DNA from: Pseudoglutamicibacter albus
GTDB taxonomy: Bacteria; Actinomycetota; Actinomycetes; Actinomycetales; Micrococcaceae
DNA length: 64,000 nucleotides
Assembly: GCF_022346425.1 (NCBI RefSeq)
Contig: NZ_JAKRCW010000001.1
Location: forward strand, 186,001-250,000
Reading direction: 5' to 3'
The notes under the pieces were generated by a model that saw only the letters and a list, made by a program, of their open reading frames with translations, made no database searches and was not told the origin of the DNA. A program made the translations under genes and the position numbers. Of the stretch, positions 458-34,991 are shown in pieces (the stretch's first letter is position 1; every line of letters starts with the position of its first letter).

Positions 458-960
458 TCACTTCCTGCGCGTCAGGGCGAGTAGTGTCAGCCCGATGCCT
501 GCCACGGTCCAGGCCGCCAGTACCAGCAGAGCCTGCCCACCGACGGAGTAGGTGTCAGAGACCAGTCCGGCGCGGATCACGTCCCCGGCGGGCATGACCG
601 GCAGTAGCTTGTGCACTCGGGCGTACCAGTCGGGTAGCCGTTCCACCGGGAAGGTCACGGGGGAGAACATGAGCACGAAGAACACCATCACCTGGCTGAC
701 GACCTGCGCCAGCATCGCCGGTAGGGTCACAGCGATCGCGTAGCCCACAGCGGTGGCCATCACGGTCACCAGGAGCGCTCCGGTAATCAGCAGCGGCCAG
801 TCTAAAGAGAACTCCACATCGAACCGCCACCACGCTGCCAGTCCGGCAACCACCACGCTGGGCAGGGCCACGAGCACCCAGAAGGTGAGGTAGGCGGTTA
901 GCGCCCCTGCCGACCGGGGCGTGACGCTGCTGGTCCGGGACGTTGAAATGGTGCCGCGGG
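458..960 (-). pseudogene. ABC-2 type transporter permease, 5'-truncated
   Basis: The frame encodes four or more hydrophobic segments and an ABC-2 permease C-terminal region, including the FSPVTFPVERLPDW-type stretch before the last transmembrane segments. It ends with a basic ALTRRK tail. This is the membrane half of an ABC-2 exporter. Only the C-terminal part is present, about 165 residues against the usual 250 or so. Upstream of about 960 the frame stays open but no longer looks like a permease, and no partner ATPase is adjacent. I read it as a gene fragment left by rearrangement. An internal GTG at 877 could start a 139-residue product, but no good ribosome site precedes it. Confidence 0.55.
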
Positions 961-1138: not shown

Positions 1139-2473
1139 TCAGCTCTGTGCCGGCCTGCCTGGTACGGGTCGGTTCGGTTCGCTGATGCGGGTATCGAACC
1201 GGGTGCTCGCCCACTTTCGTTGGGTTGAGTTCAGCAATTCAATGAGGTCTTTGGAAACGAAACCGCGTTTCCCCTTTCCCACATTGAGTGACTCAAGCAC
1301 CCCGGTTTTCAAGAGATGGTCAAGAGCGTTCTTCGCTGACGTGGTGGTTGTTCCGGTTAGTTGGGCTGCCAGGCCGACGGTGAGCATCGGGAGCTTGGGT
1401 AGAACATCAAGAATTTTCCACACGGTTGAGTCTTCCCGCGGTATTCGTTTGCCGGTCTGCTCGGCATAGGTGGCGACCATCTCGCGGGCATCGCGTTCAA
1501 ACTCGTCGAGCTCATCCCTGAGCGCAGCCGCAAGATCCACAGCGTCATCAGCGGCCGCGATGAATGTCCGGAGCCATGTGTTGATGCCTTCGCTGACGTT
1601 GAGCTCGCGGACAGGTTCAGCGTCCGATGCGAGCTCAGCACCGTTCGGGATGCCACGGAACGCCATGAGCCCGGCAATGTATTCATCTGAGCGTGTGAGT
1701 AGAACCTGGCTGATGGGCAGTACGGAGCTTTCTGTGAGGCCGCCCCGGACAAGTACGGTGTGGATGAGCGCGCGGCCGATGCGCCCGTTGCCGTCAGCGA
1801 AAGGGTGCAGGGTTTCGAACTGCGCATGCACCAGGCCGGCCTGGATAAGGCACCCTACGGCGGCGCCGCTCATGAATTCCACGAGGTCCTCCACGGCAGG
1901 AACTAGAACGTCTTCCGTGGGAGGGATGAACTCGGCTTCCCCTGGGTGGATCTCGCTCCCGCCCACCCAGTTCTGCCTGTCACGAATCCCTGAGGCGCCA
2001 AGGTGGGGTAACAGCTCTGTCTGTAGCTCTTCGATGCTGGCCCAAGTGATGTTTTCGGCTGCGCCGAGGCGTTCAACTGCGCTGGTGAGGGCCGCGATGT
2101 TAGCGGCGACTTCTGCCGCCACCGATGGATGCCTCGTGTCAGGGGTGCTGTTCGTGGCTTGTTCGAGTCGTTTGAGCTCTTCGACCACAATGTTTCGTGC
2201 GTTAGACCGTAACCCCTCCATGTAGGAGCTTGAGACGGCTTCGCTACGCAGAAGGTGCCGTGAGACGGCTTCGAGTTTGCCTGCGGCGTCGTGAAACTTC
2301 AGGTTTCGGATGCGCCGTTCCACGCGCCCGGCTTCGGCTGCTACTTCTGGATCGATGCGCCATTCAGGTGTGGTGAGTGAGAACGGCTGATACGCCCAGT
2401 AGGTTCCGTGCCAGCGGTCGCGCGGGCGCCGTGCATGATCAGAGGGGGTCCACTCCCTAGCTGTCCACGACAT
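1139..2473 (-). CDS. Fic family protein with C-terminal winged helix
   Basis: Fic enzymes transfer AMP or another phosphate-containing group from a nucleotide to target proteins. The core motif HPFADGNGR is intact at about residues 223-231. An N-terminal inhibitory motif of the (S/T)xxxE(G/N) type, SSSYMEG, sits at about 81-87, which places the protein in the self-inhibited class with an N-terminal inhibitory helix. Residues ~370-430 look like a winged helix-turn-helix followed by a basic RGFVSKD segment, as in Fic proteins that bind DNA. The ATG at 2473 is preceded by GGAAGG at suitable spacing; a TTG twelve codons upstream (2509) lacks one. The protein is 444 residues, normal for the family. 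The gene stands alone on the minus strand and is preceded by three regularly spaced operator-like repeats, suggesting autoregulation. The target is unknown. Confidence 0.92.
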   Translation of the reverse strand: MSWTAREWTPSDHARRPRDRWHGTYWAYQPFSLTTPEWRIDPEVAAEAGRVERRIRNLKFHDAAGKLEAVSRHLLRSEAVSSSYMEGLRSNARNIVVEELKRLEQATNSTPDTRHPSVAAEVAANIAALTSAVERLGAAENITWASIEELQTELLPHLGASGIRDRQNWVGGSEIHPGEAEFIPPTEDVLVPAVEDLVEFMSGAAVGCLIQAGLVHAQFETLHPFADGNGRIGRALIHTVLVRGGLTESSVLPISQVLLTRSDEYIAGLMAFRGIPNGAELASDAEPVRELNVSEGINTWLRTFIAAADDAVDLAAALRDELDEFERDAREMVATYAEQTGKRIPREDSTVWKILDVLPKLPMLTVGLAAQLTGTTTTSAKNALDHLLKTGVLESLNVGKGKRGFVSKDLIELLNSTQRKWASTRFDTRISEPNRPVPGRPAQS

Positions 2474-2505
2474 ACGCACCAACCTTCCAGCAAGCGATGT
2501 GTATC

Positions 2506-2595
2506 TCAAGGATAAACCTTATTCTTGAGAGAATGCATGGTGTAGTCAAGGATAATCCTTATCTTTGACGGCTGTTCTCGCGCAGCCAAGGATAA
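2506..2595. promoter_or_regulatory. Three operator-like repeats at 40-bp spacing upstream of fic
   Basis: CAAGGATAA occurs at 2507, 2547 and 2587, exactly 40 bp apart (about four helical turns). The first two are extended to palindromes of the form GATAA-N3-TTAT(C); the third is a half site. They lie in the fic promoter and leader. I infer binding by a dimeric regulator, possibly the winged helix of Fic itself. Confidence 0.7.
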
Positions 2596-2635
2596 CTGGG
2601 AAGTTTGCGTGCGCTCCGGGTACTGAAAACCAAAA

Positions 2636-2675
2636 CGACGGTGGCGCATGCGTTATCTCGCATGCGCCACCGTCG
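2636..2675 (-). terminator. Intrinsic terminator of the E1-E2-SDR operon
   Basis: A perfect 17-bp stem (arms 2636-2652 and 2659-2675) has a 6-nt loop. Read on the minus strand it is followed by a T-rich tract (CGTTTTGGTTTTC). It lies 75 bp past the stop codon at 2750 and closes the minus-strand operon. Confidence 0.85.
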
Positions 2676-2749
2676 CTGTCAGCCGTGCTCTTAGCCGGCG
2701 ATGTACTAGCCCGCCAGATCCTAGCCAGCTAGGTATAAGCGACCTTGCG

Positions 2750-8308: not shown

Positions 8309-8962
8309 ATGGCGAGTCGAGAAACACAGTCTGCAAGCGAGCGGATCGCAGCAGAGTTGAGAGCAAGGATCCTTAAGGGAGACCTTCTTCCGGGGGAGAG
8401 GATTCGCCAGGAGGCCATCGCCGAGGAGTTCGGAGTGAGCCGCCTACCGATCCGCGAGGCCCTCCGCATTCTTGAATCCGGTGGACTGATTCGCCTTGTG
8501 GCTTCCACGGGTGCGTGGGTTGCATCCATGAGTCCGGCGGAGCTTGAGGAAAGCTATCGGATCCGCGAACGCCTTGAACCGCTTCTCTTAGGGCTCGCGG
8601 TCCCGTTTCATAACGCGGAGTCGCTGAGCGAGATTGAGAAAGTCGCCGAGGCCGTTGAGCAGGCTGAAACCGTCGAGGAGTTCGTGGACCTTGACCGGAA
8701 GTTCCACCTGAAGACCTTCGAAGGTCCGCCGGTAGACACCCTGCGATCCATGGTGGTGCGCTTGTGGAACACGACTCAGCACTATCGCCGTGCCTTCGTT
8801 GAGCTGCAGTGGGATAAAGGTCTGGAAGAGACGTTCATTGAGCACCGGCTGCTGTTATCAGCCATCGCCCGAGGCGACGTCGATGCAGCTGAAGACTTGA
8901 TGGCGATGCACATCCGCAAAACCCGCCTCGCGTTGGCGGATACGCCTGGCATTTTTCAGTGA
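8309..8962 (+). CDS. GntR/FadR-family transcriptional regulator
   Basis: A ligand-responsive repressor of 217 residues. Residues ~5-70 form a GntR winged helix-turn-helix (KGDLLPGERIRQEAIAEEFG, then SRLPIREALRIL). The rest is an alpha-helical FCD domain, with family-typical metal or ligand residues (a conserved Asp in the DLDRKFH segment, and EHRLLLSAI with its His). The ATG at 8309 has AAGG upstream. It is transcribed away from the E1-E2-SDR operon and just before a VOC-fold gene that starts within 100 bp. Palindromes in both flanking promoters and ahead of the GntP gene point to local control of the whole pathway, probably by a small organic acid. Confidence 0.92.
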   Translation: MASRETQSASERIAAELRARILKGDLLPGERIRQEAIAEEFGVSRLPIREALRILESGGLIRLVASTGAWVASMSPAELEESYRIRERLEPLLLGLAVPFHNAESLSEIEKVAEAVEQAETVEEFVDLDRKFHLKTFEGPPVDTLRSMVVRLWNTTQHYRRAFVELQWDKGLEETFIEHRLLLSAIARGDVDAAEDLMAMHIRKTRLALADTPGIFQ

Positions 8963-32300: not shown

Positions 32301-34991
32301 GCCGAGGGCCACGAGATCTACTACACCTACGATGACCCGAACACGGTGTCTGTATGCCCAACGAACGCTCAAGGCAAGGATGACCTCGATGCGTGCGTGA
32401 ATGCCTCGCGGGCGACCAAGCGCGATATCGATAAGAAGCCGAGCGAAACCAAGTGGGAGCTGCTGACCCAGGAGGTTATCGAGGCCCAAGCCCAGCCGGG
32501 TGCCAAGCACATCACGGCGCTGCGTTTCGATAGCCCGCTGCTAAGCCCTAAGTCCGAGGACGCATACGTTCTGGACTTTGAGTCGTACGGCAATAAGCAC
32601 GGCGATAAGTACGTGAACTCCACGGGCATCGCCACGATGCACGCTGTCCGCGGCGAGACCGCCGACACCACCGGCGTCGGGGCCTTGCCTGTTCCGCAGC
32701 CGGACCCGGTCAAGACTGAGGTTTATGCCGCGAAGATCTCCGGTACCGTCTACCACGACGCGAACCGGGACGAAAAGCAGCAAGACGGCGAGAAGAACCT
32801 GCCGGGCTACACCGTGACCCTCTACGAAGTGGACGAGAACGGTGAGATCAAGAAAGACGAGAACGGAGAACCCGTCGCTGTCCAGACCACCACGAGTGAT
32901 AAGGACGGCAACTACACGTTCGAGTCTCTCAAGCGGGGCGACTACCGCGTAGTGGTGAGCCCGCTGGAGGAAACCGACATCAACACCCAAGCAGGTAAGG
33001 GCGAGAACACTGATGCCGGCTCCTGGACGGGCCAGGTCATCACCGTGACCGAACCGAACCCGGACAAGTATGACGCCAACAAGCCTCAAACCCACAGTAA
33101 GTATGACTTCGGTGTGTTCAAACCAGCCCCGAAGATTAGCCTCAAGAAGACCGTGAACGGTAAGGACTCTGACGAGGTAGCCGTTAACGGTGAGGCGAAG
33201 TTCGCCCTGGCCGGTGAGAACAACGGCAACGTTGACCTTGAAAAGGTCAAGCTGGTCGACACCTGGGCCGAAGGCAAGGACCCTCTTGACCTGACGTGCA
33301 CCATCACGCCGAAAACTGGCAGCGACTACGCGGGGGACGCGACTGAGGACCTGCTCAACGGCGAAGCCAAACTCGCGGTAGGGGACACCTATGAGTGCAT
33401 CGGAACCTACACCGTCACCCAGGACGATGTGGACGAACAAGTCACGCTGCCTAACAACGCCGATGTGACCGGTGCATACCTGTATAAGTCCGCCACCACC
33501 GACGAGGACAAGGAACTCCCTGTAGAAGACCACAGCAAGGCGACCGTCACTGTGCCGGAAGCTAAGCCCGCGCTTGAGGTGACCAAGACTGTTGATGGTC
33601 AGAAGTCAGTTATGAAGAAGGCTGGTGAGAAGGCCGAATGGTCCATCACCGGCAAGAACACCGGCAACGTAACCCTGTATAACGTGAAGCTCGCCGATGA
33701 GTGGGCCGGTGGCGACATTGAACTGACCTGCACGATGGGCGAGGAAGAGATCGATGTAGCCTCCGGTGACGTGACCCTGCCGGTGGGTGCCGAATTCACC
33801 TGCACGGGTGAAAGCGAGATCACCCAGGACCACGTGGATGCTGGCAACGAGCTACCGAACACCGTGACCCTGACGGGTTCTTCGAAGCCGGAGGGCGGCG
33901 AGAAGGTCAGCTCGAAGGACACCGCGACTGTCACCGTCCCGAAGAGTGAGCCATCGCTGAGCCTTCAGAAGACCGTCACCAACTGGGCTGAAGACGCCGA
34001 ACCGGCGCCTGAACCGCTCACGGTGGGCGACAAGGTCGAGTACAGCTTCATCGTCTCCAACAACGGGAACGTGACCGTCAAGGACGTCACGGTCGAGGAC
34101 CCGAAGGTTCAGGATCTCGACTGCGGCGAGGCAAACACCACGCTGGCTCCGGGGGAATCGTTTACCTGCACCGCATCGCACGTTCTGACCAAGGAGGACG
34201 TTGAGGGCCAGACCGAATACGTCAACACGGCGAAAGCGAACGGCTCCACGGTCCCGGGTGAGCCGGTCGAGTCGAATGACGCAGAAGCCAAGGTCAAGGT
34301 CGCAACCCCGAAGTTGGAGCTGGAGAAAACCGTCAAGGATAAGAAGGACAGCTACCTGGCCGGGGACAAGGTCGAGTACCTCTTCACCGTGACCAACACC
34401 GGCAAGCTCACCGTCAACGGCATCGAGCTGGATGACGCGATGCTCACCGAAGCCGACGTCGACGTCACGTGCGAGGCCGAAACCCTCGCGCCGGGCGAAT
34501 CGACCATGTGCGTGTCCGGTGAATACACCGTGACAGAGGCCGATGCGGACGCCGGCGAAGTCATTAACACGGCAACCGCATCCGGCACCACGAACAACGG
34601 GACACCGGTGAAGTCTAACGAGGCGAACGCCAAGATCACGGTCGAAAAGCCACGTGAACCGGAAGAACCAAGCGAACCAGCGCCGAGTGAATCGCCGGAG
34701 CCAAGTGAGCCGGCTCCGAGCGAACCTGCGCCAAGCGATCCAACACCGAGCGAACCGGCTCCGAGCGAGCCAGGCGATCCGAGTGAGCCTGCGCCGGAGG
34801 AACCGGGTGAATCGCCACAGCCAAGCGAAACCCCGGAAGCTAGTGAGACGCCGGCTCCGGAAACGCCGGAGGGTAGGAAGCCGGGCCTGGCTACCACGGG
34901 TGCTGAGGTGACGGTCGCTGTGTTGGCTGGGCTTGGCCTGGTAGCCGCTGGTGTGGCGCTCGTGCTGGTACGGCGTAAACGCCGCAGTTAG
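29364..34991 (+). CDS. Large cell-wall-anchored surface protein with LATTG sorting signal
   Basis: A secreted protein of 1,875 residues. A signal peptide spans ~1-36 (basic start, hydrophobic ALAVLALVFGMTVAL, then Ala-rich). A large N-terminal region of unknown fold (40-1120) is followed by an SdrD_B/Cna_B-like module at ~1124-1240 (ISGTVYHDANRDEKQQDGEK). Four DUF11-like repeats begin with a Lys-Thr-Val motif near 1257, 1403, 1532 and 1652, and a Pro/Ser/Glu-rich wall-spanning tail covers ~1765-1835. LATTG (~1842), a hydrophobic helix and RRKRRS form a sortase signal. LAxTG rather than LPxTG points to class E sortase. AAGGA precedes the ATG at 29364. It is probably an adhesin or fimbria-like protein. 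A strong terminator follows. Confidence 0.9.
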   Translation: MFTRITSPLYRRTGSALAVLALVFGMTVALPNPATATPDAESGAVATATAEATSIETVAPATEAEAPGELGAPGETQTVELGDGNVQYGLRLARDGGAGCIITKANGYEPGDNTPRDGNICAGDIAHYSIDLNVKTAGEPSTFKLTPTWLSAEARAAGLPEPTVKPTLKTGSANYGGVSATVDANGVVTVKADPNINATVSLELTASTIASMQLSDGTNPEGTFNLGLKAVKEDGTKLITAVANKKLNVLVEPRFDQRLIEPESGVNTTTRNGIEYIGISARSGLPAYPSDQKHSPAPDSATPNGRILPIDPETISRYTLVMPADAPFKAEDVLVSYNGSPWQKAKVDANGNPYIDGKYDKSNPPFRFLIPTEGLPGGKTTFTTRMDIVDKDGKPTRVKDSRGVPSNIPTTVGNKALGNNTADPGGLSECSASTADEKQGLLAGQYGFPNNNCAKQVVDLTKWKCTNPNGCPSAKDDVGINWVETEEKGKQAFGYKQALASANVRLNVTPADVKDNPTICAAWKPGTQRVVTTGNTYVPTIQIGGTGKVNIESVFPDAKVYITKQDKTNGGDPDCAGDAGWEVFYDASAGVKGNTFAEPGSMKPNEIAGIKIVIPGENVIQQPTTFRYMATTGDPRVVSTLPTVKAAKGDAEYYKTLNYGAVYSGDKKVRGSMQDTILAEKPAAGVRDIWGTLGETRVAGIGEQKQRLTTAGQVVVNNGTLAAVNSKDADGNPTRVHMRIYLSKCVTADEETLSPGMTYHRGEISNNPNDCAPSKDNYIERTWALSDQKNETDDPNNDPFFPIDWATKNAASSSVFFQPWDNGQPRPAFTVVTPVWSGPRQSFDVVHSYRITGTPELDLDKAMPALKKDRTIKSSSSKGAFTPAQDAAKEYTPLDSMASLSTLTVPNVVAAGLAKSTEDKLVDHDTAFQHELKLSNYTEAQLGATQFIDVLPFNGDWRGTTFSGEYWLSKVPENSGSNTAEGHEIYYTYDDPNTVSVCPTNAQGKDDLDACVNASRATKRDIDKKPSETKWELLTQEVIEAQAQPGAKHITALRFDSPLLSPKSEDAYVLDFESYGNKHGDKYVNSTGIATMHAVRGETADTTGVGALPVPQPDPVKTEVYAAKISGTVYHDANRDEKQQDGEKNLPGYTVTLYEVDENGEIKKDENGEPVAVQTTTSDKDGNYTFESLKRGDYRVVVSPLEETDINTQAGKGENTDAGSWTGQVITVTEPNPDKYDANKPQTHSKYDFGVFKPAPKISLKKTVNGKDSDEVAVNGEAKFALAGENNGNVDLEKVKLVDTWAEGKDPLDLTCTITPKTGSDYAGDATEDLLNGEAKLAVGDTYECIGTYTVTQDDVDEQVTLPNNADVTGAYLYKSATTDEDKELPVEDHSKATVTVPEAKPALEVTKTVDGQKSVMKKAGEKAEWSITGKNTGNVTLYNVKLADEWAGGDIELTCTMGEEEIDVASGDVTLPVGAEFTCTGESEITQDHVDAGNELPNTVTLTGSSKPEGGEKVSSKDTATVTVPKSEPSLSLQKTVTNWAEDAEPAPEPLTVGDKVEYSFIVSNNGNVTVKDVTVEDPKVQDLDCGEANTTLAPGESFTCTASHVLTKEDVEGQTEYVNTAKANGSTVPGEPVESNDAEAKVKVATPKLELEKTVKDKKDSYLAGDKVEYLFTVTNTGKLTVNGIELDDAMLTEADVDVTCEAETLAPGESTMCVSGEYTVTEADADAGEVINTATASGTTNNGTPVKSNEANAKITVEKPREPEEPSEPAPSESPEPSEPAPSEPAPSDPTPSEPAPSEPGDPSEPAPEEPGESPQPSETPEASETPAPETPEGRKPGLATTGAEVTVAVLAGLGLVAAGVALVLVRRKRRS

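What the first reader, a model, noticed from the sequence alone, without database searches (positions are those of the whole stretch)
2506..2595. Three operator-like repeats at exact 40-bp intervals in front of fic
CAAGGATAA at 2507, 2547 and 2587, with palindromic extensions (GATAA-N3-TTATC), is a phased array on one DNA face. The Fic protein has a C-terminal winged helix that could bind it. AMPylation activity may thus be coupled to its own transcription.
Basis: partly seen in the sequence, partly recalled or inferred. Interest (0 to 1): 0.6.

Follow-up and report, generated by a model that had tools for sequence, protein, structure and literature searches.

The report
Self-binding operator array before fic gene
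In front of a bacterial gene for a Fic protein (an enzyme that can attach AMP to other proteins and often acts as a toxin) lie repeated binding sites spaced exactly 40 bases apart; relatives with quite different site sequences keep the same 40-41 base spacing, which suggests that the enzyme binds its own promoter and controls its own production.

Summary
Two near-perfect 23-bp palindromes (2506-2528, 2546-2568) and one half-site (2586-2595) lie 40 bp apart, 33-122 bp before the ATG of fic; no shuffled sequence matched. The third repeat is only a half-site. The array is kept, at exact spacing, before fic in two further Pseudoglutamicibacter genomes and two Brevibacterium (fic 79-95% identical). 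The palindrome stems are conserved while loops and flanks are not. Across 126 Fic homologues of the same domain layout, 53% have a significant promoter palindrome, against 7% of control genes and 1 of 36 short Fic/Doc genes. Without using palindromes at all, direct repeats in these promoters peak at exactly 40-41 bp (26 of 59 protein clusters; background 2.3; p about 2e-21). The peak recurs in Fic genes on viral contigs but not in controls, although site sequences differ from clade to clade. The C-terminus is modelled as a winged helix. The best reading is that Fic represses its own promoter as an oligomer with a fixed ruler. Self-binding by a Fic-HTH protein is published (CccR). I found no report of the family-wide ruler or the diversified operators. 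Coupling to AMPylation remains untested.

The parts
1139..2473 (-). fic: class II Fic protein, 444 aa, with C-terminal winged helix
   Evidence: Pfam Fic E 1.7e-13; PADLOC SoFic E 5.6e-62; structural match to 7cb8 Z 40.1 over 377 residues and SoFic 3eqx Z 35.7 over 348 residues
2506..2528 (.). operator palindrome 1 (gene-proximal)
   Evidence: conserved in 5 loci
2546..2568 (.). operator palindrome 2, centre 40 bp from palindrome 1
   Evidence: conserved in 5 loci
2586..2595 (.). third, half-site only (CCAAGGATAA), 40 bp further
   Evidence: mean pairwise identity 0.67 in five loci, against 0.39 for the rest of the upstream
2509..2514 (-). candidate -10 (TATCCT) inside palindrome 1; TSS not mapped
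   Evidence: arm TTATCCTTG invariant in 5 loci; a TANNNT at the same +6 position is in 23 of 67 family palindromes
2549..2554 (-). candidate -10 (TATCCT) inside palindrome 2; alternatively the scan's -35 TTGACT (2549-2544) with -10 AAGAAT (2526-2521) spans both palindromes
2483..2488 (-). ribosome-binding site GGAAGG of fic
   Evidence: sequence; AAGG invariant in the 5 loci
2213..2230 (-). inhibitory motif S82xxxE86G87 of class II Fic
   Evidence: S82, S83 and E86 invariant in A1
1772..1807 (-). Fic motif HPFADGNGRIGR (residues 223-234)
1256..1426 (-). C-terminal winged helix-turn-helix (residues 350-406)
   Evidence: AlphaFold2 model: helices 350-357, 366-373, 377-390; strands 394-399, 402-406; 10 of 19 A1 members match Pfam MarR_2
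2634..2677 (-). intrinsic terminator of the upstream operon, separating it from fic

Best explanation
The array is the operator of fic, and its reader is the Fic protein itself. A Fic dimer or higher oligomer places its C-terminal winged helices on the inverted half-sites CAAGGATAA. It occupies two palindromes and a third half-site at a fixed 40-bp period over the fic promoter, and so represses its own transcription. The 40-41 bp interval is a structural ruler of the Fic oligomer. Relatives that recognise different half-site sequences keep the same interval, so protein geometry rather than DNA sequence is conserved. Shown here: the array, its conservation, the family-wide palindromes and ruler, and a modelled winged helix. 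Inferred: binding by Fic, repression, oligomeric state, and the position over -10/-35.
For: (1) The array is kept at exact spacing and position in five loci of two genera. Stems are 80% invariant, the 3-nt loops 0%, upstream flank 10%. (2) Between the genera only fic is shared next to the array; no regulator gene is common. (3) The 23-bp palindrome occurs only before fic in the three congeneric genomes and in none of 56 other relatives' genomes. (4) Of 7 hits of the related motif CAAGGNTA-N5-TANCCTTG in 297 genomes, 5 are directly before fic and 1 about 300 bp from another fic; the reversed control gave 0. (5) Significant promoter palindromes: 67 of 126 homologues, 18 of 255 control gene starts, 1 of 36 short Fic/Doc genes. 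(6) Direct repeats peak at 40-41 bp in 26 of 59 protein clusters (background 2.3, p about 2e-21; 25 of 58 without this clade). The peak recurs in 9 of 29 clusters of Fic on viral contigs (p about 4e-10) and is absent from control genes and short Fic/Doc. (7) The C-terminus is modelled as a winged helix and the whole protein matches solved Fic-wHTH structures. (8) CccR, of the same layout, binds and represses its own promoter (PMC9755527).
Against: No binding or expression data exist for this protein. 19 of 59 clusters show neither a significant palindrome nor the ruler, and only 2 of 7 named plasmid homologues reached 9 of 11 matches at lag 41. The published CccR site has half-sites 36 bp apart, not 40-41. 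Operator similarity follows winged-helix similarity beyond the Fic core (Mantel p 0.007), but also the core beyond the winged helix (p 0.003), so the reading domain is not singled out. A regulator encoded elsewhere in the genome is not formally excluded.
Confidence: 0.8

Rival explanations
1. A separate transcription factor encoded elsewhere binds the array and controls fic.
For: The window holds a GntR-type regulator at 8309-8959 (by its sequence), and nothing here proves that Fic is the binder.
Against: No regulator is shared next to fic between the two genera. The sites occur only before fic. Different Fic clades have different half-sites with the same 40-41 bp spacing, which a single trans factor would not explain.
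Confidence: 0.12
2. The palindromes act as RNA hairpins (attenuator or processing sites) in the fic leader.
For: Each palindrome could form a 10-bp stem with a 3-nt loop.
Against: On the transcribed strand both window stems carry an A-C mismatch. The third half-site has no partner arm. A 40-41 bp direct-repeat ruler and family palindromes overlapping -10-like hexamers at a fixed position fit DNA operators. No T-run follows the palindromes.
Confidence: 0.04
3. Chance or residual repeat without function.
For: CAAGGATAA alone is common in the genome (11 copies).
Against: Zero palindromes in shuffles; stems are conserved in five loci while loops and flanks are not; the 40-41 bp signal is family-wide.
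Confidence: 0.01

Closest known systems
CccR of Yersinia pseudotuberculosis (PMC9755527)
   Same: Class II Fic with C-terminal HTH. The dimer binds inverted repeats in its own promoter near -35/-10 and represses itself.
   Different: Its footprint is AGATAATCAT-N26-ATGATAATCT (half-sites 36 bp apart), not tandem 23-bp palindromes at 40 bp. It is a secreted T6SS effector; nothing suggests this for the window protein. I did not fetch its gene.
SoFic / Sofic (Shewanella oneidensis, E. coli; 3eqx, 3zcn; PMC12249575)
   Same: Same fold over 348-355 residues including the C-terminal domain (Z 35.7, 18-19% identity). The window protein also matches PADLOC's SoFic model.
   Different: Below NCBIfam's equivalog cut-off for SoFic (54 against 550 bits). 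In the passages of PMC12249575 that I searched there is no promoter binding by Sofic. Anti-phage activity of the window protein is untested.
Fic protein of Mycobacterium marinum (PDB 7cb8)
   Same: Best structural match, Z 40.1 over 377 residues, full length.
   Different: 28% identity. I found no paper in the library on its DNA binding.
CbFic2 of Coxiella burnetii (PMC10628234, 8cil)
   Same: Class II Fic with C-terminal winged helix that binds DNA; DNA induces dimerisation.
   Different: Assayed with random DNA only, so no operator is known. DNA changed its AMPylation and deAMPylation activity, which is untested here.
phd-doc type II toxin-antitoxin
   Same: A Fic-fold toxin whose transcription is set by operator palindromes (established knowledge).
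   Different: There the DNA-binding part and the inhibitor lie in a separate antitoxin gene. Here inhibitor motif, enzyme and DNA-binding domain are in one protein.

Membership tests
Class II Fic proteins | Fic motif HPFx(D/E)GN(G/K)R | tested here: met
   HPFADGNGRIGR at 223-234, core residues invariant in A1
Class II Fic proteins | N-terminal inhibitory motif (S/T)xxxE(G/N) | tested here: met
   SSYMEG, S82/E86 invariant in A1
SoFic (NCBIfam NF046030 equivalog) | Score above the curated cut-off of 550 bits | tested here: not met
   54 bits
SoFic (PADLOC model) | Match over most of the model | tested here: met
   E 5.6e-62, model positions 5-359 of 361
Self-repressing Fic-HTH proteins (CccR type) | C-terminal HTH/winged helix | tested here: met
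   Model residues 350-406; MarR_2 in 10 of 19 A1 members
Self-repressing Fic-HTH proteins (CccR type) | Inverted repeats over its own promoter | tested here: met
   Inverted repeats in the private upstream region of fic; the promoter itself is inferred, not mapped
Self-repressing Fic-HTH proteins (CccR type) | Protein binds these repeats and represses its own gene | not testable with these tools
   Needs EMSA, footprinting and a reporter
phd-doc type II toxin-antitoxin | Separate DNA-binding antitoxin gene next to the toxin gene | tested here: not met
   No antitoxin-like gene found between the array and fic; the adjacent genes are a transporter-permease fragment and a dehydrogenase operon

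The most novel reading that the evidence does not exclude
A Fic oligomer reads its promoter with a fixed 40-41 bp ruler conserved far beyond this genus while the half-site sequence diversifies, and occupancy of this array also sets the enzyme's state. Operator DNA would then act as the antitoxin of a one-gene defence system, and loss of host DNA or of promoter occupancy during phage attack would release active AMP-transferase.
Probability: 0.15. Interest if true: 0.85.

Novelty: new variant of a known kind. Interest (0 to 1): 0.6.

Why it matters
Fic proteins with a C-terminal winged helix are widespread (92 of 297 Actinomycetes genomes sampled) and include the Sofic type implicated in phage defence, but how most of them are kept in check is not known. 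If the operator and ruler are right, one published case (CccR) becomes a rule for much of a family. The binding site of many uncharacterised Fic proteins could then be read from their promoters. The conserved 40-41 bp period makes a direct prediction about Fic oligomer geometry on DNA. The DNA-dependent activity of CbFic2 could then be tested with cognate rather than random DNA.

Tried and rejected
A trans-acting regulator next to fic: no shared neighbour between genera. RNA hairpins: see rivals. Tying the winged helix, rather than the whole protein, to operator sequence by Mantel tests gave no separation. The first negative-control script found too few Fic motifs and was redone by coordinates. 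A -10/-35 pair could not be fixed: two alternatives remain. Of seven named plasmid homologues, taken as a small out-of-sample test, four had an inverted repeat at p 0.033 or below and a fifth at 0.049, but only two had a 9-of-11 repeat at lag 41, so the ruler is common, not universal. A paper search for Fic with 41-bp direct repeats found nothing; absence from that open-access library is not proof of novelty. A direct look at the cccR promoter for a 40-41 bp repeat was left out, because that gene codes for an injected effector.

Full report
OBSERVATION. CAAGGATAA lies at 2507, 2547 and 2587 on the + strand. The first two belong to 23-bp palindromes, TCAAGGATAA-ACC-TTATTCTTGA and TCAAGGATAA-TCC-TTATCTTTGA, each one mismatch from perfect; no shuffle of the window produced such a palindrome. 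The third is a half-site. The gene fic runs on the minus strand (1139-2473), so the array lies 33-122 bp before its ATG. A strong terminator-like hairpin at 2634-2677 closes the upstream dehydrogenase operon. The array therefore sits in the private promoter region of fic.

THE PROTEIN. The 444-residue product has the Fic motif HPFADGNGRIGR and the N-terminal inhibitory motif SSYMEG, hence class II. The AlphaFold2 model (mean pLDDT 81) ends in three helices and a two-stranded wing at residues 350-406. Over its whole length it matches Fic of Mycobacterium marinum (7cb8, Z 40.1, 377 residues) and, with 18-19% identity, SoFic (3eqx, 3zcn; Z 35.7). PADLOC calls it SoFic (E 5.6e-62), but it lies far below the NCBIfam equivalog cut-off for SoFic.

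FOOTPRINT IN CLOSE RELATIVES. Two congeners (one is Pseudoglutamicibacter cumminsii) and two Brevibacterium carry fic 79-95% identical to this one, with the same two palindromes, exactly 40 bp apart, at the same distance from the ATG. In the five-way alignment the stems are 80% invariant (pairwise identity 0.91), the 3-nt loops 0% (0.27) and the upstream flank 10% (0.39). In three loci a T-A outer pair is replaced by C-G in at least one palindrome, so the symmetry is kept through change. The half-site copy is weakly kept (0.67). Neighbouring genes differ between the genera and no regulator is shared. The palindrome occurs nowhere else in the three congeneric genomes and in none of 56 other relatives' genomes.

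THE FAMILY. A profile search of 297 Actinomycetes genomes found homologues in 92; with earlier loci, 126 usable non-identical promoters were tested. The best inverted repeat between -140 and +30 beat all 60 dinucleotide shuffles in 67 of 126 cases. For 255 intergenic control starts in the same loci this was 18, and those control repeats are mainly GC-rich. Among 36 short Fic/Doc genes without the winged helix, and with the start chosen in their favour, it was 1 (p 5e-9). Half-site sequences form clade-specific classes: TAGCATCGG, TTCAAGGTTA, CTTGTGATACC, TTACCAACAC and others. The class CAAGGTTA-N5-TAACCTTG in homologues with only about 40% core identity has the same 21-bp frame as the window's CAAGGATA-N5-TATCCTTG. 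A scan of 297 genomes for the joint motif gave seven sites, five directly before fic and one about 300 bp from another fic beside an insertion sequence.

THE RULER. Searching around the family palindromes for further copies of their own arms, I found copies in 36 promoters, most of them exactly 40 or 41 bp away although the arm sequences are unrelated between clades. I then dropped all use of palindromes and asked, for every lag from 12 to 109, how many promoters hold an 11-mer direct repeat with 9 or more matches. Only 40 and 41 stand out: 22 and 35 of 126, against about 3 at other lags. By clusters at 60% protein identity it is 26 of 59 against a background of 2.3 (binomial p about 2e-21); without the window's own clade 25 of 58. 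Control genes (12 of 254, background 16) and short Fic/Doc genes (1 of 36, background 2.8) show no peak. An independent set, Fic genes on viral contigs from another collection, shows the same peak (9 of 29 clusters at 10 or more matches, background 0.45, p about 4e-10). The binomial values treat clusters as independent, which is only approximately true. In a small out-of-sample set of seven plasmid homologues two had a 9-of-11 repeat at lag 41, and 19 of 59 clusters have neither signal, so the ruler is common, not universal.

MECHANISM. The palindromes give dyads, the direct repeat gives the period, and sequence changes between clades while the period stays. The simplest cause is a protein oligomer of fixed geometry whose DNA-reading domain evolves, encoded by the one gene always present: fic. 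CccR, a Fic-HTH protein of Yersinia pseudotuberculosis, is shown by EMSA, footprint, calorimetry and reporter fusions to bind and repress its own promoter as a dimer with DNA-binding helices 70.2 A apart (PMC9755527). That is about 20.6 bp of B-DNA, close to half of the 40-41 bp period; this is my inference, and the published CccR half-sites are 36 bp apart. A -10-like TANNNT hexamer lies 6 bp from the dyad in 23 of 67 family palindromes. In the window it is TATCCT in both palindromes, within an arm invariant in all five loci. Occlusion of RNA polymerase, hence repression, is therefore more likely than activation, but no start site is mapped.

WHAT IS NOT SHOWN. Binding by this protein, repression, oligomeric state, and any link between promoter occupancy and AMPylation. 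CbFic2 shows that DNA can switch a Fic-wHTH enzyme between activities (PMC10628234); in CccR regulation and toxicity were reported as independent.

CONTEXT. In P. cumminsii fic lies beside a type I restriction-modification locus, with an Abi_2 gene about 1.5 kb beyond its other side. Helcobacillus has an HsdM gene directly after fic that is 92% identical to that of P. cumminsii, and Brevibacterium sp. has an HsdR gene nearby. The gene seems to travel in defence neighbourhoods, which fits the Sofic type, but phage defence was not tested.

VERDICT. Self-binding Fic-HTH proteins are known from CccR. The tandem-palindrome architecture, the clade-specific operators and the 40-41 bp ruler are, as far as the searched library shows, new.

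Noticed in passing
L275:2-4935, L275:8786-9691, L025:4417-5133, L024:5140-7218: fic relatives sit beside type I restriction-modification genes (HsdM 92% identical between P. cumminsii and Helcobacillus); an Abi_2 gene lies about 1.5 kb from fic in P. cumminsii.
   Followed up: partly
window 461-877 and L275:7324-7749: A transporter-like permease fragment directly downstream of fic is 99% identical between the window and P. cumminsii, more than fic itself (95%).
   Followed up: no
L161:1501-1521: An orphan CAAGGTTA-type operator about 300 bp from a different fic gene, with transposase reading frames on its other side; possibly a remnant of a disrupted fic locus.
   Followed up: partly
L004: A fic homologue (53% identical) whose open frame begins only at about residue 81, just before the inhibitory motif; no array was looked for at its true start.
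   Followed up: no
window 34334-34342: Single further CAAGGATAA in the window, not in an array.
   Followed up: no
viral contigs L164-L243: Many viral contigs carry Fic genes of this layout with promoter palindromes (22 of 68 scored significant) and the 40-41 bp repeat.
   Followed up: partly
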